From an uncultured bacterium (GTDB lineage Bacteria > Patescibacteriota > Gracilibacteria > Absconditabacterales > Absconditicoccaceae), in contig CALMTC010000011.1 of NCBI GenBank assembly GCA_937872535.1, positions 124,001 through 188,000 of the forward strand: 64,000 bases of DNA, given 5' to 3'. Below are positions 18,144 to 50,123 of the stretch, piece by piece (within the stretch, counting starts at the first letter, position 1; the number at the start of each line of letters is the position of its first letter). The position numbers and the translations under genes are program-made. The notes below the pieces were generated by a model. It did no database searches and was not told where the DNA came from. It saw only the letters and a list, made by a program, of their open reading frames with translations.

Positions 18144-20039
18144 ATGGAAGTTTGAAAATTAAAATACTTACTTGAAAACATTAATTCTGAAGACCAAGAA
18201 GCAAAAGAAAAACAGGAAATTTGATGAAATTTTTCTTATAAAAAAACAGAAAAAAATATCGAAAAATCAAATTATCCTATAGTAAAAGGTGAAGAAAGCT
18301 TAAGAAAATTATTAAAATCAAACAACATCAAACTACCAGAAGACAATATTATTCAAGCACCAAAACTGGCTTGACCAGATTTCACACTTGCAGTAAAAGA
18401 AATATTTGATCTGAATAAAGAGCGTTATGAAGTAATAAATCAGTGTTCTGATGAACTAGAAAAAATACTCAAAAATGATCCAAATACATTTCGAGCAAAA
18501 ATCGAAAAAAAATGAATTTTCATCAATATTTTTTGTGGAGAATCTTTTTTCCAAGATTGTTCAAAATTCATCTTAGCTCATCCAGAAAACTATGGAACAA
18601 TTAAAAAAACTAATCCAAAAAACATAATTGTAGAATACTCATCGCCAAACATGGCAAAACAAATGACAATTTGACACCTCAGATCAACAATTATTTGAGA
18701 TATGATTCAAAAAACATTAAGCTATATGGGAGAAAATATTTTGAAACGAAATTATTTATGAGACCGATGAACACCATTCGGAAAACTAATTTATAGCCTA
18801 CTGTTTCACTACCAAAAAGATGGAGACACAGTTTTCAAAGAACTAGAAGCAAATCCAACTGCGACAATGGGAAAATTATATTCTGCATTTAAAGATATTG
18901 AAGACGAGGAAAAATGAGATAAAGCCAGACTTTTTTTTCAAAAACTCGAAAATGGAAATAAAAATTTATATGAAATATGGTTAATTTTAAGAGAATTGAC
19001 ACTAATAGATTTCGATCAAGTCTACAAAAGATTAGGTACCGAATTTGACACTTATCTCTGAGAAGCTTTTATTCAACAGTATTGTGATGAAATTTTCTCA
19101 GAATTAAAAGAAAAAAACTTCATCATTGAAGATCAATGAGCCAATATAATCAAACTTATCAAGCATTGACAGTGAGAAAACAGCTATTACAAAGTTCTAA
19201 AAGCTTCCGACTCGATCAGCGAAGAAGACAAAGTAGAAATTCTATTGATTAAAAAATCAGATGGAGCATCACTTTATTCGCTTAGAGACATAGCTCTCAC
19301 CAAAATAAGAACCCAAAAAATCTTAGCAGATGAAATAATTATATTCACTTGAGCAGAGCAAAACACGCATTTTGCTATGATAAAAGCAATTTGCGAAGAA
19401 ATGAACTACATAAGACATTGAGCATATCAGCATTTTTGATTTTGACTTATTCTTCTAGATGGTAAAAAAATGTCATCTCGTCAGGGAAAAATCAAAAAAC
19501 TCAGCGACCTGCTCGATACTATTCAAGAAAAAATTATAACCAGTTTTGAAGAAAAGATAGATGCAAAATGAGCAGACAAACTATGAATTTCTGCACTTAT
19601 ATTCAACGATCTCAAAAATGACAGAATAAAAGATTTCCAATTTGATCTAGAACAAATGACAAAAATCAATGGAGACACATGAATTTATCTACATTACACC
19701 AATGTCAGAATAAAAAAATTAAAAGAAAAAATAAAAGAAGTAGACATAACTTGACACACTATATCAGTTCGAAGCGAAAGCGAAAAAAAAATAATAAGAA
19801 AATGTTGAATCTTTGCCTCTATTTTAGAAAAAGTTATAGAATACAAAAAACCTCATATTTTTGCGCAATATATCTTAGACATTTGCAGAGATTGTAATGA
19901 ACGATACAGTACTACACCAAAAATAGTAGAAGCCGATCTAGAAACTCAAAAAAACAAAAAAGCAATCATAGAAACAATTCTAATCACGCTCAATCATTGA
20001 CTGAATATACTAAGAATACCTGAAGTTCAAGAAATGTAA
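18144..20039 (+). CDS. argS: Arginyl-tRNA synthetase
   Basis: 631 residues, class I enzyme. The signature EYSSPNMAKQMTIGHLRST contains the HIGH-type motif (Gly177-His178), and KKMSSRQGK (~residues 441-449) is the KMSKS loop. The C-terminal DALR anticodon-binding domain follows. It charges tRNA-Arg. In this code Arg is left with AGA, AGG, CGU and CGC, so its tRNA set should lack CGA/CGG readers. The start follows tRNA-Thr by 23 bases; no Shine-Dalgarno sequence. Confidence 0.97.
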
Positions 20040-29675: not shown

Positions 29676-31019
29676 ATGAAAAATTTTGAGAATAGTATCT
29701 TCCGATTTCGTCAGGATTTAAGGATTTTTGATAATTTATGATTACAAAGAGCAATAGAAAATTCGAAAACAGTAACTCCTCTCTTTATTTTTGATGAAGC
29801 TATCATAGCAAAGTCTCTCAAAAAAGATCCGAGACTTTGATTTTTGATCGAAGCGGTAGAAAAACTAGCTAAGGAGCTAGAAAGTAGATGATCTCACTTG
29901 ATAGTAAAATTTTGAAATCCCAGACTTATTGTACCAGAAATTGTAAAAGATACAAAATCAGATGCTATTTTTTGTTCAAAATCCTATTGAATTAATAGTA
30001 AAACCAGGGATATTTTCATCTCAAATCGAGCAAAGGAGCACTCAGTCTATTTTGAACAGGTAGAAGATTTTTTGCTAGTTCCACTAGCCAAAGTAGAACA
30101 AAGAAAAGTTTTTACGCCCTTTTTTAACAAGTGGATTCAGCATATTCCAGAAAACTACGATTTAGTTGAAAATAAAAATATTTTATCTAAAAAAATACCA
30201 GAAGATAACTGGAAAAAACAGTTAGAAAAAGCTATTTCTCAGATTGACTCCTGAAAAAATAAATACCGATCCATGGATTTTTCAGTTCAAAGACTGAAAG
30301 AATTTGATTTTACAAACTATGAAAATACCAGAAATTTCCCTTATGAAGATGGTTCTTCTAAACTTAGTCCTTATTTGAGATTTTGACTTTTATCAGTCAG
30401 AGAACTTTATAATACAGTGAAAAATAAGAGTCAGACTTATGTAAAAGAATTAGCTCGACGCGAATTTTGGCAGCACATAAATTATTATTTTCCAGAATCA
30501 AATGTTGTAGAATTTCAGGAAAAAAGGAGAAATTTAAAACGAGAAAATAACGAAAAATTTTTTGAAGCCTGGAAAAATTGAAAAACAGGGTACCCTATTA
30601 TTGATGCTGGTATGAGACAGCTCAAAGAAGAAAATCGAATTCACAATAGAGTCAGGATGATAGTTGCATCTTTTTTGACCAAGGACTTACTCATAGACCG
30701 AAGATGGTGAGAAAAGCACTTTGCAAACTACCTTATAGATTACGATGAAAATGTGAATATCGGAAATCGGCAACGATCAGCCTCTGTAGGAGCAGATCCC
30801 AAACCCATTAGGATTTTTTCACCAATTCTTCAATCTCAAAGATTTGATCCGCAGACTCATTATATCAAAAAATATATTCCTGAATTAAAAAATATTCTTC
30901 CTGGCTTGATTCATGATCCTACTCTCCATGATTTACCCTATGAAAAACCCATCATTATTCATAAAAATCAGCTTCCAAAAGCTAAAAATATGTATTATCA
31001 AAACAATACACTTTTTTAA
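29676..31019 (+). CDS. DNA photolyase
   Basis: 447 residues, cryptochrome/photolyase family. N-terminal [12 protein letters not shown] is the Rossmann start. The FAD-binding half carries [62 protein letters not shown] and [21 protein letters not shown]. Six recoded codons fall on invariant family tryptophans: CGA at 29703, 30456, 30636, 30699 and 30774, and CGG at 30768. This is the strongest evidence in the window for CGA/CGG=Trp. It repairs UV pyrimidine dimers with light, probably the class I CPD type. Confidence 0.97.
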
Positions 31020-42304: not shown

Positions 42305-42377
42305 CAAGAGGATCAGGAATTGAACCTGAATCTTCGGTTTCGGAAGCCGCTATTCTAACCATTAGAACTATCCTCTT
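42305..42377 (-). tRNA. tRNA with anticodon CCG, probably decoding CGG (and maybe CGA) as tryptophan
   Basis: 73 nt. Acceptor AAGAGGA / TCCTCTT with A1-U72 and discriminator G73; T stem TCAGG/CCTGA with loop TTCAATT; D stem GTTC/GAAT. The anticodon loop is TTCCGAA. The anticodon stem has three central pairs, with mismatches at 27-43 (G-A) and 31-39 (C-A), which is unusual. A1-U72 and G73 agree with bacterial tRNA-Trp identity, while the anticodon is that of Arg(CGG). Given Trp at CGG/CGA codons here, tRNA-Trp(CCG) is the likeliest call; tRNA-Arg is the alternative. CCA is not encoded. Confidence 0.75.
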
Positions 42378-42647
42378 TCATTTTAGAGCAGAATTTTATT
42401 ATATTTTTTACAACTATAGTATAAAAATTTTTATTCTGCTTTTTATTAAAGAAACTAAACATCTTCCAAAATTATAAGTTTATCTTCAAATAAAACAAAG
42501 AGAAACTGTACTATAGATAAAACTTATTGTAGTGAAATAAAAAGTGTCACAAAAAAAAATTTCTGTCGTAAACCCAACTGAACATTAAAAATAAGTCCTC
42601 GTATGATAATGTTTTTTACAAAGTCTGGTGTTTTTGTAATAAATCAC

Positions 42648-42676: not shown

Positions 42677-42811
42677 GCGAGGCATATCGTGTGGAGACAC
42701 GAAACGACAAACTATGTTCATTCCATGTTAATTCGTCTGCAAGTATGCTAGGAAAGGCGACTTTGCGTGACATTGTATTATTTTTACATTTATGTACAAA
42801 CAACAAAAAAC
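42677..42811 (+). other. Long 5' leader of the S-layer-like mRNA
   Basis: About 130 bases between the promoter and the ATG, less AT-rich than most intergenic DNA. A hairpin TCGTGT-ggag-ACACGA lies at 42687-42702, near the predicted 5' end. Such leaders often stabilise abundant S-layer mRNAs; that is inference. No Shine-Dalgarno sequence before the ATG. Confidence 0.5.
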
Positions 42812-45800
42812 ATGATTACATTGAAAAAAATTGTAGCGAGCTTTGCAGCTCTTGCAATTGTAATGTCTCAAAATGTTGCTTTGGTATCTTACGCACAGTC
42901 TATACCATCTCAATATGTTGACGCTTACAATTTTGCTTACGAAAATGGTCTTACTTCTATGTCTAGCGCAGAAGCATTTATGCCTTTTGCTACTATGACA
43001 AGAGAAGCGGCTGCTAGATTTATGGTAAAATTTGCTGACCTTATTGCTGCTGCTCAGGTTGAAGGACAAGATTGTTCTTTCTCAGATCTTGGATCTGCAG
43101 ATCAGTCTCTCGTTTCTTTCATCAACGATGCATGTGCTAAATATGCTATCATGAAAGGTTCAAACGGAGCATTCATGCCAAAAGCTTCTGTAACAAGAGG
43201 TCAAATGATTACTATGCTTTCTAGAGCTTTATATGGTAATCAATATGATTCTACTTCTGCTGACTACTGGACGCTTCACGCTAACAGATTAGTGGAAGAT
43301 GGTATTATTACTGTAGTAAATGCTGATCAACTTGTGTTGAGAGGTGATGCTATGATCATGCTTATGAGAGCTTACGACATGAACGGTGGTGATGATCTTG
43401 GTGATCTTCTCGGAGGTCTTCTTGGATCAGGATCTAACGCTTCTGGATCAACTAACACTGGTGTAGTTGTTGAAGTTAAAGCTGGTAACTTAAATGTTGC
43501 TCTTTCTCCTTCTTCAGCTCAAGCTAGATCAGTTCCAGGTAATGGTGTTGTTCCTGTTGGAACTTTCAGACTTACTGCTGGATCATCTGATGTTACTGTA
43601 AGATCAATTACAGTAAGAAGAACTGGTCTTGGTAATCAAGATGAAATTAGTAGACTATTCTTTGAAATGGCTGGTATGAGAGTTTCTGGTAGACAAACTT
43701 TGGGTACAGACCAAAAAGCTATCATTAATATTTCTCCTGCTATCGTAGTAAAAGCTAACTCTTCAGAAGATCTTGATCTTAATGTTGTGTACTCAGGAGT
43801 AACTTCAAACGGTCAGCACGTGTTTGCAATTGATTCTGTAGACTCAGTTGATAGTTCAGCTGCTGCAGTTCAGGGAGCTTGGCCAGTAATGACTAATATG
43901 GTTACTACTACAAGTTACTCAGTTCTTAAATCTACATTCAATACTACTTCAGGGTCAAATACTCTTAAGGTAGGTGATATGGATTCTGAACTTGGTAGAT
44001 TTAATATTACAAACAATGACTCAAATAAAGTTGCAGTACTTAAGAGTATCACATTGAGAAATGATGGTGCAGGTGATGTAGCTATGAGTCTTTCAAATGT
44101 TGTTGTTACAAGAAACGGACAAGCAGTTTCTACAAAAGTTGTTCCAAATGGTAGATTAATGACTGTTACTTTCAATGATGAAATCAATGCAGGTGTACAG
44201 GCTAACTATATCATTAGAGCAAACGTTATTGGAGTAGAAAATGTAAACGGAGACGATTACAAATTCAGACTTCAACAAAATGACGATCTTAATGTTATCG
44301 AAAAAGATACTGCGTTCAAATCTAATGTAACATCTACTGCTACTACTATGGGTACTTACACAGTACAGGGTGGTGACATTACATTCAATAGAACAGCTGG
44401 TTCTCTTACTACTCAAACAATCTCAGCTGGTCAACAAGATCAGAAATTGCTTGATGGTCAGATTACTGTAAAACAAGCAGTTAGATTCGAAACTCTTACG
44501 GTTTCATTCCAAACAGGTGCTTATACAGGTAATTACGGTGCTTACTTCCAAAATGTTAAATTGGTAATTGGAGGTAGAATTGTATCTAATGTTAGCCCAA
44601 CTATTACAAGTGCTAATACTATTACATTTGATGGAACATTTGATGTTACATCAAATACAGATATTAAAATTCTTGGAACTGTTAGATCTAACATTCCTGC
44701 GACTACTCCATCTCCAATCTTTAAGTTGAATGATTTAAATCCAAGTCAGTTCGCTGTTAAAGAATATATTGTAAATGGAAATACTGTATCTTCTATAGCT
44801 GGTACTGTTCAAGGTATCGCTACAACTGTTGGTGCTGTGACTTTGACTGTTTCAAAAGCAGACGGTCTAGCTAACGAACAAGTTGTAAGAGGTACATCTA
44901 ACAAATTGGTATTTGCTGTAAGATTGACAGCTGGTGATGTTTCAGAAGTAAGAGTATCAAGTCTCAAATTTGGTAATCTTCTTTCTAATGGTGGAGCTTT
45001 CTTCCCAGGTTCATCTCTTGTAAGTTTGACTCTTTCTACAGGTGCTAATGGTGTTGCATTGCCAGGAGCTACTAAAAATATGGAAACTGTAGCAGGTTAC
45101 TCTAGTGGAGGTGCTGTGTTCAACTCTTTTGGAAACATTGTTGTTCCAAAAAATGGATCAGTTACTTTCTATGTAACAGCTAGTTTCGCTTCATCTATTG
45201 CGACAGGTTCTCAATTACAATTATCTTTTGGTACATCAGATATCCAAGCTACTGATGATCAAGGAAATTCAATTACTCCAAGTTTCGCAACAGTTAATGG
45301 TTCTGTTATGACAATGAGAGATGCTGGTACATTGAACCTTAGTTCAAATGGTCAAATCAACAGCAGACTCCTTCTTGGTGCGGGTGCAAACGAAAATGTT
45401 TACTCTTTCGATTTAGCTGCTCAGGATGATGATCTTAGATTGACAGATATATATGTTCAGTTTACAGGTGCAAATGCTGTAAATGGTAATGACAGAATAG
45501 CTTCTATTAAGCTTCTTTCTGGTTATACTGTAGTAGATGAAGGTATTGTATTTGCTAGTGGTGCTAGATTTAATCTTACTGATAGTTCTACAGAAACATT
45601 GAGAGCTGGAAAAACTAAGACTTATACTGTAAGAGTAGAATTAAATGCTCCTACTTCATCAGGTTCTTATATTGCTACAGGTCTTCAACTTATTCTTGGA
45701 ACAGGAGGTGTAGATGCATCTCAAGTTAATGCAGGTACTACTAATGGTATCAGAGCTCTTTCAGTAAATGCTGGATCAGCAGTTGTAGTAAATAATACTC

Positions 45801-46297
45801 CTTCAGCTGGACAACAGCACTCTGTTTCACAAGCTCATGTAACATTGGCTGCTTTGCCTTCAGCAAATAACTTTAATGGTGCTACAGTTGCATATAAATT
45901 CAAGATTACTCCATCTGCTAATACAAATGTAGTAGTTATGAGTGGTCTTACTATCAACTGTTCATACGCTGGTGCTGCAGTAAACGCTCAATTGATCGTA
46001 GGTGATACTAATACAGCTACAACAAATAATCAATTGTCAACTTCTACTGCTCTTACTACAGCTACTGATATTGCTCTTAATGTTACATTGAACACAGGTT
46101 CAGCTAGATTTAGTTCAGAAAATACATTTACTGTAGTTTTGAACTCTGCTATGGCTGCTGGTGCTAAATCTTGTACTATTAAAGATGTAAGAATCAGTGA
46201 AGAATTTAGTAATGGTTTTGTAAGAACTATCGGATCTCTTTCTCCATTCGGAAACGTTGGATTTGGAGCTGGTATGCCTACTCTTTCATTGCAATAA
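42812..46297 (+). CDS. Large SLH-domain surface protein, probable S-layer protein
   Basis: 1161 residues. Signal peptide MITLKKIVASFAALAIVMSQ...SYAQS, then SLH-type units over ~residues 40-190 (FMPFATMTREAAARFM, FMPKASVTRGQMITML). After a Gly/Ser linker comes a long Ser/Thr/Val/Asn-rich series of beta domains to the end. The frame is open even in the standard code: it uses no UGA for its many glycines, and I noticed no CGA or CGG, as expected of a highly expressed gene. A longer frame starts at 42767, but the signal peptide begins at 42812. It probably forms the main surface layer. Confidence 0.9.
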   Translation: MITLKKIVASFAALAIVMSQNVALVSYAQSIPSQYVDAYNFAYENGLTSMSSAEAFMPFATMTREAAARFMVKFADLIAAAQVEGQDCSFSDLGSADQSLVSFINDACAKYAIMKGSNGAFMPKASVTRGQMITMLSRALYGNQYDSTSADYWTLHANRLVEDGIITVVNADQLVLRGDAMIMLMRAYDMNGGDDLGDLLGGLLGSGSNASGSTNTGVVVEVKAGNLNVALSPSSAQARSVPGNGVVPVGTFRLTAGSSDVTVRSITVRRTGLGNQDEISRLFFEMAGMRVSGRQTLGTDQKAIINISPAIVVKANSSEDLDLNVVYSGVTSNGQHVFAIDSVDSVDSSAAAVQGAWPVMTNMVTTTSYSVLKSTFNTTSGSNTLKVGDMDSELGRFNITNNDSNKVAVLKSITLRNDGAGDVAMSLSNVVVTRNGQAVSTKVVPNGRLMTVTFNDEINAGVQANYIIRANVIGVENVNGDDYKFRLQQNDDLNVIEKDTAFKSNVTSTATTMGTYTVQGGDITFNRTAGSLTTQTISAGQQDQKLLDGQITVKQAVRFETLTVSFQTGAYTGNYGAYFQNVKLVIGGRIVSNVSPTITSANTITFDGTFDVTSNTDIKILGTVRSNIPATTPSPIFKLNDLNPSQFAVKEYIVNGNTVSSIAGTVQGIATTVGAVTLTVSKADGLANEQVVRGTSNKLVFAVRLTAGDVSEVRVSSLKFGNLLSNGGAFFPGSSLVSLTLSTGANGVALPGATKNMETVAGYSSGGAVFNSFGNIVVPKNGSVTFYVTASFASSIATGSQLQLSFGTSDIQATDDQGNSITPSFATVNGSVMTMRDAGTLNLSSNGQINSRLLLGAGANENVYSFDLAAQDDDLRLTDIYVQFTGANAVNGNDRIASIKLLSGYTVVDEGIVFASGARFNLTDSSTETLRAGKTKTYTVRVELNAPTSSGSYIATGLQLILGTGGVDASQVNAGTTNGIRALSVNAGSAVVVNNTPSAGQQHSVSQAHVTLAALPSANNFNGATVAYKFKITPSANTNVVVMSGLTINCSYAGAAVNAQLIVGDTNTATTNNQLSTSTALTTATDIALNVTLNTGSARFSSENTFTVVLNSAMAAGAKSCTIKDVRISEEFSNGFVRTIGSLSPFGNVGFGAGMPTLSLQ

Positions 46298-47878: not shown

Positions 47879-48658
47879 ATGTCCACTTATCTCGGTCAAA
47901 ATTTTCTCTCTGATGACGAAATAATCTCCTATATAGCCAGTAAAATAGCATCTCTTTGCCAAGAAAAAAAATCTGAGGCGATTTTTGAAATCGGACCTGG
48001 TAAATGAGCGATCACGAGAGAAATTCGCTCGATTTCAAAAGATTTTTGGTGTTTCGAGAAAGACGAGACGATGAAGAATCATCTTAAGCCCCTCGTCGGC
48101 GACAAAATCATCTGGTGAGATATTCTAGATCTCGATATCGAGCACTTTATCAAAGAAAAAAATCTCAGCCCAGAAAAAATTTTCATAGTTTGAAACTTGC
48201 CATACTATATCACTTCACCGATTCTAAGAAAGTTTTTCTCCAGCTCTTTAAGCCATTTTTCTGGCTGATTTTTCATGATCCAGAAAGAAGTCGGCGACAA
48301 AATCAAAGTAGATGCCTCCAAAAAGTCCTATCTTCGACGACTTCTCAATTTTTTCTACGAAGTCACCTACTGTAAAACCGTTCCACCTAGCGCATTTTCC
48401 CCTGCTCCAAAGGTTCACAGCTGTCTCATATCTCTGACTCCAAAACCAACTCTCTGAAAATTTTTTACTCTGGTTTCTTATGAAAAGATGCTGGTTTTTC
48501 TGGATGCATTCTCCCCTTATAAAAGAAAAACTCTTTGAAAAATACAAAAAATGCTCTCCAAAAGTGAAGAGCAACCTACTTATTCCATCCCCGAGCACCT
48601 CGCTACTAAAAGGCTCGAAGAACTCACCCGATCAGATCTAGAAAGTATCTTAGGATAA
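47879..48658 (+). CDS. rsmA: 16S rRNA dimethyladenosine transferase
   Basis: 259 residues. QNFLSDDEII, SAM-binding EIGPGKGAITREI, catalytic GNLPYYITSPILR (NLPY motif) and VPPSAFSPAPKVHS are all family signatures. Gly of PGKG and VGNLPYY is UGA. It dimethylates two adenosines in the 3' hairpin of 16S rRNA. Also called ksgA. Convergent with tyrS. Confidence 0.96.
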
Positions 48659-48698
48659 GGAAATTGAAATTATGTGATTCCAGAAATAAAAATTTTTA

Positions 48699-49981
48699 TT
48701 ATTTTTTGAGGATAAGTTTAAAAGATTTTTTCCCTTTTTTAAGTAATCCAGCCTGTCAGCCAATCAGATCGCTAGCTTCCAAGACGCTGTCAAGCTTGTC
48801 AATTTTCTTGTCATTGAGCGAAACACCGCCAGCAGCCACGAGTTTTTAGCTTCGCTCTTCGAGGTAGTGAGTCCTGTCTCGACAATGAGATCCAGCAGAG
48901 GAGTTCAGAGAGCAGCACTAGCTCCTCAGAGTTCAGTCTTTATTGACTCGAGAGTTTGACTATCTAGTCATGCCAAAGCCGTCGAGCTATCATCTCCAAA
49001 CATCAGTCCAGAAATAGTATTTGCAAGTTTTGCAGCATTTTCTCCAAAAATTGTCTCGACAACATAGTTAGCGAGTTGTTGCTGTCCATATCTGAGCTCA
49101 GTTTTTTCTTGGTGTTTTTTGACGATATTGTCTACTTCGTCTATATTCAAAAGTGTCAAAATGAGTAAAAATCTGCGAACATCTTCATCAGCTGTATTCA
49201 AAAAATACTGGTACATTGAGTACGGAGTAGTCATCTCAGGATCGAGCCAGAGAGCATTTCCAGCGGATTTTCAGAATTTTTTTCCAGCAGAGTCGACGAG
49301 CAGAGGAGAGGTCATACCATAGACTTCTTTATCAAGTTTTTTTCTGACAAGTTCGACACCTGTCACGATATTTCATCGCTGGTCCGAGCCAGAAATTTCG
49401 AGAGTTACCCCGTGATCTTGGTAAAGCTTGAGAAAATCATAACCCTGCATCAGCATATAGCTAAACTCTGTAAAAGAGATAGATTTTTCAGGATCTTCAA
49501 TCCTTTTTTTCACAGTTTCCTTATTCATCATCTGATTGACCGTGATATATTTTCCTACCTCCCTCAAAAAACTTAGCCACTCCAAGCCTTTATAAAAGTC
49601 ATAGTTGTTGATCACTTGTACTTCAGCATCGAGCCCAGTCAGTTTTTTCAGATGAGTCATGATCGTATGCATCTGTTGTTCAATGGCTTTCACATTAGTC
49701 TCGAGAGTCTCGTTGTCCAAAAAATTTCTTTCGCTGTCTCTTCCACCTGGATCACCAATCATTCCAGTAGCTCCACCGACTATCAAGATCAGTTTATTTC
49801 ACTTTTTCAAATAATTCACAGCGGTCATAAAAACCACAAAATTTCCAAGATGCATCGAACGAGCTGTAGGATCTACACCAAAATACAAAGTTTGACCACC
49901 TTTATCAAACGAATCAAAAAAAGTGTCGCCTGTAGACTGGTAGAGAAGTCAGCGCTGTTCAAGTTCAGTTTTTAAATGCAT
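48699..49981 (-). CDS. tyrS: Tyrosyl-tRNA synthetase, with a frameshift near the 3' end
   Basis: About 427 residues. [20 protein letters not shown] carries the HIGH-type motif, [14 protein letters not shown] the tyrosine-binding signature, and KFGKSAGNAL the KMSKS loop. In GSDQWGN the Trp is CGA and the Gly UGA, side by side at 49373-49378. The C-terminal S4 domain ([19 protein letters not shown]) is in the -1 frame: at 48843-48847 there are five A where six would keep frame. This is a sequencing or assembly error, a real mutation, or a -1 slip at TAAAAAC. Confidence 0.93.
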
Positions 49982-50123
49982 CACGAATTCAAAAAAAATA
50001 AAAAAATAGTTGGTAACAAGCTAATCAAGAATCTCTTATTCACTAAAAGTTATAATCCTGATTATTTACTTTGTCTATACTTTTTATGAGCTTAGTTTCA
50101 ATCTTTCTTAGTTTTCTCGTTTG

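What the first reader, a model, noticed from the sequence alone, without database searches (positions are those of the whole stretch)
42305..42377. Candidate tRNA-Trp(CCG) with an odd anticodon stem
A 73-nt tRNA carries anticodon CCG but has A1-U72 and G73, which suit bacterial TrpRS. Its anticodon stem has only three clean pairs (mismatches 27-43 and 31-39), as if it changed identity recently. CCG should read CGG; CGA would need a UCG tRNA elsewhere or an unusual C34 modification.
Basis: partly seen in the sequence, partly recalled or inferred. Interest (0 to 1): 0.8.

Follow-up and report, generated by a model that had tools for sequence, protein, structure and literature searches.

The report
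Tryptophan tRNA for reassigned arginine codon
This bacterium belongs to a group already known to read two arginine codons (CGA and CGG) as tryptophan, and this gene is one of the two tRNAs that do it; the only unusual part is a weakly paired anticodon stem.

Summary
The tRNA is real: window 42305-42377, minus strand, Rfam tRNA 52.6 bits, anticodon CCG, A1-U72, G73. Its anticodon stem has only three standard pairs (G27·A43 and C31·A39 mismatched). The genome is an Absconditabacterales (SR1)-type bacterium: UGA is glycine and CGA/CGG are tryptophan, a code published in 2021 (PMC8629427). I confirmed Trp here. CGA aligns to E. coli Trp 28 times and Arg 6 times. Photolyase has seven CGA/CGG codons on conserved Trp columns, one of them CGG. 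CGG, CGA and TGG interchange between this genome and three family relatives. The 'missing' UCG tRNA exists (contig C4), also has Trp identity elements and a sound stem, and is widespread in the family. CCG tRNAs were found in only 3 of 49 family genomes. So CCG is an accessory Trp isoacceptor for the rare CGG codon, and no unusual C34 chemistry is needed. The one unusual point is the stem. A 2026 paper (PMC13092985) states that all Absconditabacterales CCG tRNAs have a 5-bp stem; this gene is an exception. Its genome's 4% contamination exceeds that study's 1% filter. Relaxed stem decay, or a superwobble role helping CGA, cannot be told apart from sequence. New member of a known kind.

The parts
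42305..42377 (-). tRNA gene, anticodon CCG, read as tRNA-Trp; 73 nt including G73, no encoded CCA
   Evidence: ARAGORN, Rfam RF00005 52.6 bits, single copy in the genome
42341..42343 (-). anticodon CCG (positions 34-36)
   Evidence: sequence
42346..42350 (-). anticodon stem 5' strand GCGGC (27-31); G27 and C31 do not pair
42334..42338 (-). anticodon stem 3' strand ACCGA (39-43), as in the Arg-CCG tRNA of class relative G160, where it pairs with TCGGT
42398..42425 (-). possible promoter TTTATA-16-TATAAT, about 20 nt upstream of the tRNA 5' end
   Evidence: consensus match 10 of 12; not evidence of function, the region has a high chance background
29676..31019 (+). photolyase gene whose CGA/CGG codons fall on conserved Trp columns
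   Evidence: alignment to PDB photolyases
48650..49984 (-). tyrosyl-tRNA synthetase with CGA in the motif SGSDQ[W]GN
   Evidence: codon listing, family hit to PF00579; motif from general knowledge
18144..20039 (+). arginyl-tRNA synthetase with CGA at GD[W]GT, Trp in E. coli ArgS

Best explanation
The gene encodes an accessory tryptophan isoacceptor. In this Absconditabacterales-type genome, where UGA is Gly and CGA and CGG are Trp, TrpRS charges two extra tRNAs besides tRNA-Trp(CCA): a main one with anticodon UCG, which reads CGA and by wobble CGG, and this one with CCG, which reads CGG. Shown: the gene, its Trp identity elements, the presence of the UCG tRNA, a single TrpRS gene, and Trp conservation at CGA and CGG codons. 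Inferred: charging by TrpRS, expression, and that the loose stem is tolerated because CGG is rare and UCG covers it. The stem most simply arose from a U27-A43/U31-A39 ancestor by two changes on the 5' strand.
For: Trp identity elements G73, A1-U72, U20 instead of A20, against A20 in all Arg tRNAs of the genome. CGA aligned to E. coli residues: W 28, R 6; in conserved contexts W 18 and R not among the top eight; control AGA gives R 441, TGA gives G 263. Photolyase: six CGA and one CGG on conserved Trp columns. Own CGA to family relative G042: TGG 95, CGA 48, Arg codons 5; own TGG to CGA 23 in G042 and 25 in G006; own TGG to CGG 4 in G006. UCG tRNA with 5-bp stem in this genome and confirmed by ARAGORN in 31 of 49 family genomes; CCG in 3 of 49. 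One TrpRS, best named relatives SR1/Gracilibacteria. Same code published for Absconditabacteria (PMC8629427).
Against: CGG is rare (about 3-5 per 10,000 codons), so its meaning in this one genome rests on few columns. One CGG sits on the conserved Arg of an adenylate kinase, though that gene has no in-frame TGA and looks like a standard-code import; a second adenylate kinase uses AGA there. No charging or expression data. The naked transcript folds better into a non-cloverleaf form (-19.4 against -15.1 kcal/mol).
Confidence: 0.82

Rival explanations
1. Extended superwobble: the weakened anticodon stem lets C34 pair with A, so this tRNA reads CGA as well as CGG as Trp, and the stem is selected for this.
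For: 4-bp-stem tRNA-Trp(CCA) reads UGA in E. coli, and the hypothesis predicts that loose-stem CCG tRNAs are tolerated where CGA and CGG share a meaning (PMC13092985). Own stem lacks 27-43 and 31-39. CGA is about as common as TGG.
Against: A cognate UCG tRNA with a 5-bp stem is present, so there is no need. The two other family CCG tRNAs have intact 5-bp stems although their genomes also use CGA. Two mismatches, one next to the loop, go beyond the studied single unpinning.
Confidence: 0.1
2. A decaying tRNA gene: redundant with UCG, it is on its way to loss and is poorly or not functional.
For: CCG tRNAs are absent from most of the family, so loss or lack is easily tolerated; lowest Rfam score in the window; stem broken; unfavourable folding.
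Against: All other stems are intact (acceptor 7 of 7, T 5 of 5, D 4 of 4), anticodon loop and conserved positions kept. Only the anticodon stem is affected. A promoter-like site lies just upstream.
Confidence: 0.15
3. It is an ordinary tRNA-Arg(CCG) and CGG means Arg here.
For: ARAGORN names it Arg by anticodon. Body outside the acceptor stem is closest to Arg-CCG tRNAs of class relatives. C35, G36 and G73 are compatible with ArgRS. One adenylate kinase CGG on a conserved Arg.
Against: A20, the main ArgRS element, is absent. CGG at a conserved photolyase Trp where relative G042 has CGA; further CGG/TGG and CGG/CGA exchanges with relatives. A Trp-type UCG tRNA would read CGG as Trp as well.
Confidence: 0.03
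4. The two stem mismatches are assembly or consensus errors of the draft genome.
For: Draft genome in 23 contigs; single copy, no second strain available to compare; relatives' CCG tRNAs have full stems.
Against: Both mismatches are substitutions in otherwise clean sequence of a 227-kb contig, without indels nearby; no sign of low quality.
Confidence: 0.07

Closest known systems
CGA/CGG-to-Trp reassignment of Absconditabacteria with Trp-type tRNA-UCG and tRNA-CCG (Shulgina and Eddy 2021, PMC8629427)
   Same: UGA=Gly, CGA and CGG=Trp, tRNA-GCG(Arg), Trp-type UCG and CCG tRNAs, low GC, CGG rare
   Different: This CCG tRNA has a 3-bp anticodon stem. CGA is about as frequent as TGG here (57 against 61 per 10,000 in my ORF set; 38 against 43 in conserved regions); their survey reports CGA under 37 in all species
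4-bp anticodon-stem tRNAs and the extended superwobble hypothesis (Fakih et al. 2026, PMC13092985)
   Same: C34 tRNA with the top anticodon pair (27-43) unpaired in a genome where NNA and NNG have the same meaning
   Different: A second mismatch at 31-39 leaves three pairs; a cognate UCG tRNA is present; the paper reports only 5-bp stems for Absconditabacterales CCG tRNAs
CGG-to-Trp reassignment in Anaerococcus and Onthovivens (PMC8629427, PMC13092985)
   Same: tRNA-CCG with Trp identity, some with a 4-bp stem
   Different: There CGA stays Arg and UCG tRNA is missing; here both codons are Trp and UCG is present

Membership tests
tRNA | cloverleaf covariance model above the family cut-off | tested here: met
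   RF00005, 52.6 bits against 29
Absconditabacterales CGA/CGG=Trp code | UGA read as sense (Gly) | tested here: met
   TGA aligns to E. coli Gly 263 times, next Ala 37; ORF coverage 0.84 against 0.10 on contig C11; UCA tRNA with G1-C72 and U73
Absconditabacterales CGA/CGG=Trp code | CGA at conserved Trp columns | tested here: met
   W 28, R 6 against E. coli; photolyase columns; exchange with TGG in relatives
Absconditabacterales CGA/CGG=Trp code | CGG at conserved Trp columns | tested here: met
   few cases: photolyase IGN[CGG]QW; own CGG opposite TGG or CGA, and relatives' CGG opposite own TGG or CGA; one contrary case in an adenylate kinase
Absconditabacterales CGA/CGG=Trp code | tRNA-UCG and tRNA-CCG with G73 and without A20, A/G1:U72 as support | tested here: met
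   criteria from PMC8629427
Absconditabacterales CGA/CGG=Trp code | charging of both tRNAs by TrpRS | not testable with these tools
   needs aminoacylation; only one TrpRS gene found
Absconditabacterales | phylogenetic placement | tested here: inconclusive
   TrpRS best named hits are candidate division SR1 and Gracilibacteria at 55-59% identity; no marker tree was built
4-bp anticodon-stem superwobble tRNA | exactly one terminal anticodon-stem pair unpinned, four paired | tested here: not met
   both terminal pairs are mismatched, three remain
4-bp anticodon-stem superwobble tRNA | decodes the A-ending codon through C34:A3 | not testable with these tools
   needs reporter or ribosome assay

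The most novel reading that the evidence does not exclude
The doubly unpinned anticodon stem is an adaptation that lets a C34 tRNA read CGA as well as CGG as tryptophan, making this the first Absconditabacterales example of the extended superwobble, in the one setting where both codons share a meaning.
Probability: 0.1. Interest if true: 0.6.

Novelty: new member of a known kind. Interest (0 to 1): 0.3.

Why it matters
It independently confirms a published sense-codon reassignment. It corrects one statement: not all CCG tRNAs of this order have a 5-bp anticodon stem. It also shows a family in which tRNA-UCG carries the reassigned code while tRNA-CCG is sporadic, and in which the 27-43 pair of the reassigned Trp tRNAs is often lost (10 of 26 UCG tRNAs). 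That makes a small natural set for testing whether stem loosening affects decoding of A-ending codons.

Tried and rejected
A need for C34 modification or lysidine-like chemistry to read CGA: rejected as unnecessary, because UCG is present. G012 first seemed to have CCG but no UCG by the strict pattern; a looser pattern found its UCG. My first CCG pattern used a wrong spacing and found nothing, not even the query; it was repeated correctly. A phage origin was checked with a pattern scan of viral contigs; the two matches are one protein-coding stretch, not a tRNA. Synteny of the CCG locus with G006 and G012: none found in the stretches read. Three apparent CGG=Arg columns against E. coli: at least two lie in ORFs that look antisense to rRNA, as one E. 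coli partner frame overlaps the rRNA operon, so I do not count them.

Full report
Observation. The tRNA is at window 42305-42377 on the minus strand. Its sequence is AAGAGGA-TA-GTTC-TAATGGTTA-GAAT-A-GCGGC-TTCCGAA-ACCGA-AGAT-TCAGG-TTCAATT-CCTGA-TCCTCTT-G. The acceptor, D and T stems are intact. Of 39 distinct tRNAs in the genome it is the only one with this pattern. It is single copy.

What genome this is. G000 has 1.25 Mb in 23 contigs, 98.8% complete and 4.0% contaminated, with GC about 0.33. Frames stay open only if TGA is sense: coverage by ORFs of 200 codons or more is 0.10 under table 11 and 0.84 with TGA as sense on contig C11, and similar on 13 other contigs. TGA aligns with Gly in E. 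coli proteins (263, next best Ala 37). A tRNA with anticodon UCA and Gly-type ends is present. The best named TrpRS relatives are candidate division SR1 and Gracilibacteria at 55-59%. This fits Absconditabacterales; I did not build a marker tree.

Meaning of CGA and CGG. With CGA, CGG and TGA masked, ORFs from about 710 kb were aligned to E. coli K-12 proteins. CGA falls on W 28 times, A 10, K 8, Y 7, F 6, R 6; in conserved contexts W 18 and R not among the top eight. Controls behave: AGA gives R 441, CGT gives R 43. Examples are IleRS, LeuRS, PheRS, ThrRS and L19-like motifs. ArgRS has GD[CGA]GT where E. coli has GDWGT. In the window's photolyase, CGA or CGG lies opposite Trp of PDB photolyases at seven codons, including CGG in IGN[CGG]Q[CGA]SAS, where the template reads GGWQWSAS. 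Against relatives of the same family, own CGA lies opposite TGG 95 times, CGA 48 times and Arg codons 5 times in G042. Own TGG lies opposite CGA 23 times in G042 and 25 in G006, and opposite CGG four times in G006. Own CGG lies opposite TGG or CGA in photolyase and in two weaker alignments. One CGG lies on the conserved Arg of an adenylate kinase. That gene has no in-frame TGA in 216 codons although its neighbours have many, and the genome has a second adenylate kinase that uses AGA there. I read it as a gene of standard-code origin, but it remains the one contrary case.

tRNA set. The genome has Trp(CCA), Arg(GCG), Arg(CCU), Arg(UCU), Gly-type UCA, UCG and CCG. The UCG tRNA (G000:C4:49851-49922) has A1-U72, G73, no A20 and a full stem ACGGT/ACCGT. 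The CCG tRNA also has A1-U72, G73 and U20. All three Arg tRNAs have A20. By the criteria of Shulgina and Eddy both CGR tRNAs are Trp-type. There is one TrpRS.

Family comparison. In 49 genomes of the family, tRNA-CCG was found in three: this one, G006 and G012. The patterns require a TTCCGAA/TTCCGGA loop and a standard T arm, so this is a lower bound. tRNA-UCG was confirmed by ARAGORN in 31 genomes and matched by pattern in several more. The G006 and G012 CCG tRNAs also have A1-U72 and G73 but full stems. Ten of 26 family UCG tRNAs lack the 27-43 pair, some of them likely by common descent. The 3' stem strand ACCGA is the same in the Arg-CCG tRNA of class relative G160, where it pairs with TCGGT, so two changes on the 5' strand (27 and 31) explain the mismatches. 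Outside the acceptor stem the closest matches are Arg-CCG tRNAs of class relatives (78%), which suggests an old Arg-to-Trp switch by acceptor and A20 changes. With 73 nt this is a lead, not a test.

How it most likely works. TrpRS charges CCA, UCG and CCG tRNAs (inferred). UCG reads CGA and CGG; CCG is a helper for the rare CGG. The stem is loose because little depends on it. The naked transcript prefers another fold (-19.4 against -15.1 kcal/mol); modification or tertiary contacts may correct this.

Against the literature. The reassignment is published (PMC8629427). PMC13092985 proposes that C34 tRNAs with 4-bp anticodon stems read A-ending codons and states that all Absconditabacterales CCG tRNAs have 5-bp stems. 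This gene is an exception; their filter of at most 1% contamination would exclude this genome. It does not show superwobble, since a cognate UCG tRNA is present. In line with their third prediction, the Trp(CCA) tRNA here has five pairs.

Verdict. Real and correctly read in the main, but a known kind. Interest 0.3.

Noticed in passing
L127:15109-15756 (G000:C8:55108-55755): Adenylate kinase ORF with no in-frame TGA among TGA-rich neighbours, CGG at the conserved Arg of the DG[FI]PRT motif; looks like a standard-code gene carried in a reassigned genome. A second, native-looking adenylate kinase is on C18 (14760-15218).
   Followed up: partly
L040 (G000:C6:1-2000): About eleven tRNA genes within 2 kb at the end of a 15.8-kb contig, two of them weak (33-35 bits), one called with a four-base anticodon (caaa) resembling the Met-CAU tRNA next to it; the rest of the contig encodes two proteins of about 1,900 aa. 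Not determined whether chromosomal or mobile.
   Followed up: no
family genomes, L082, L091, L092, L102-L107, L110: The reassigned tRNA-UCG lacks the 27-43 pair in 10 of 26 family genomes checked.
   Followed up: partly
window 42767-46297: A 1,176-aa S-layer-like secreted protein next to the tRNA has no TGA, CGA or CGG codon at all, and EF-Tu and L3/L4 have no CGR codon, as if highly expressed genes avoid reassigned codons.
   Followed up: no
L126:17112-17999 (G000:C8): Protein with a Por secretion-tail (type IX secretion sorting) domain, unusual for this group; possibly imported or contaminant.
   Followed up: no
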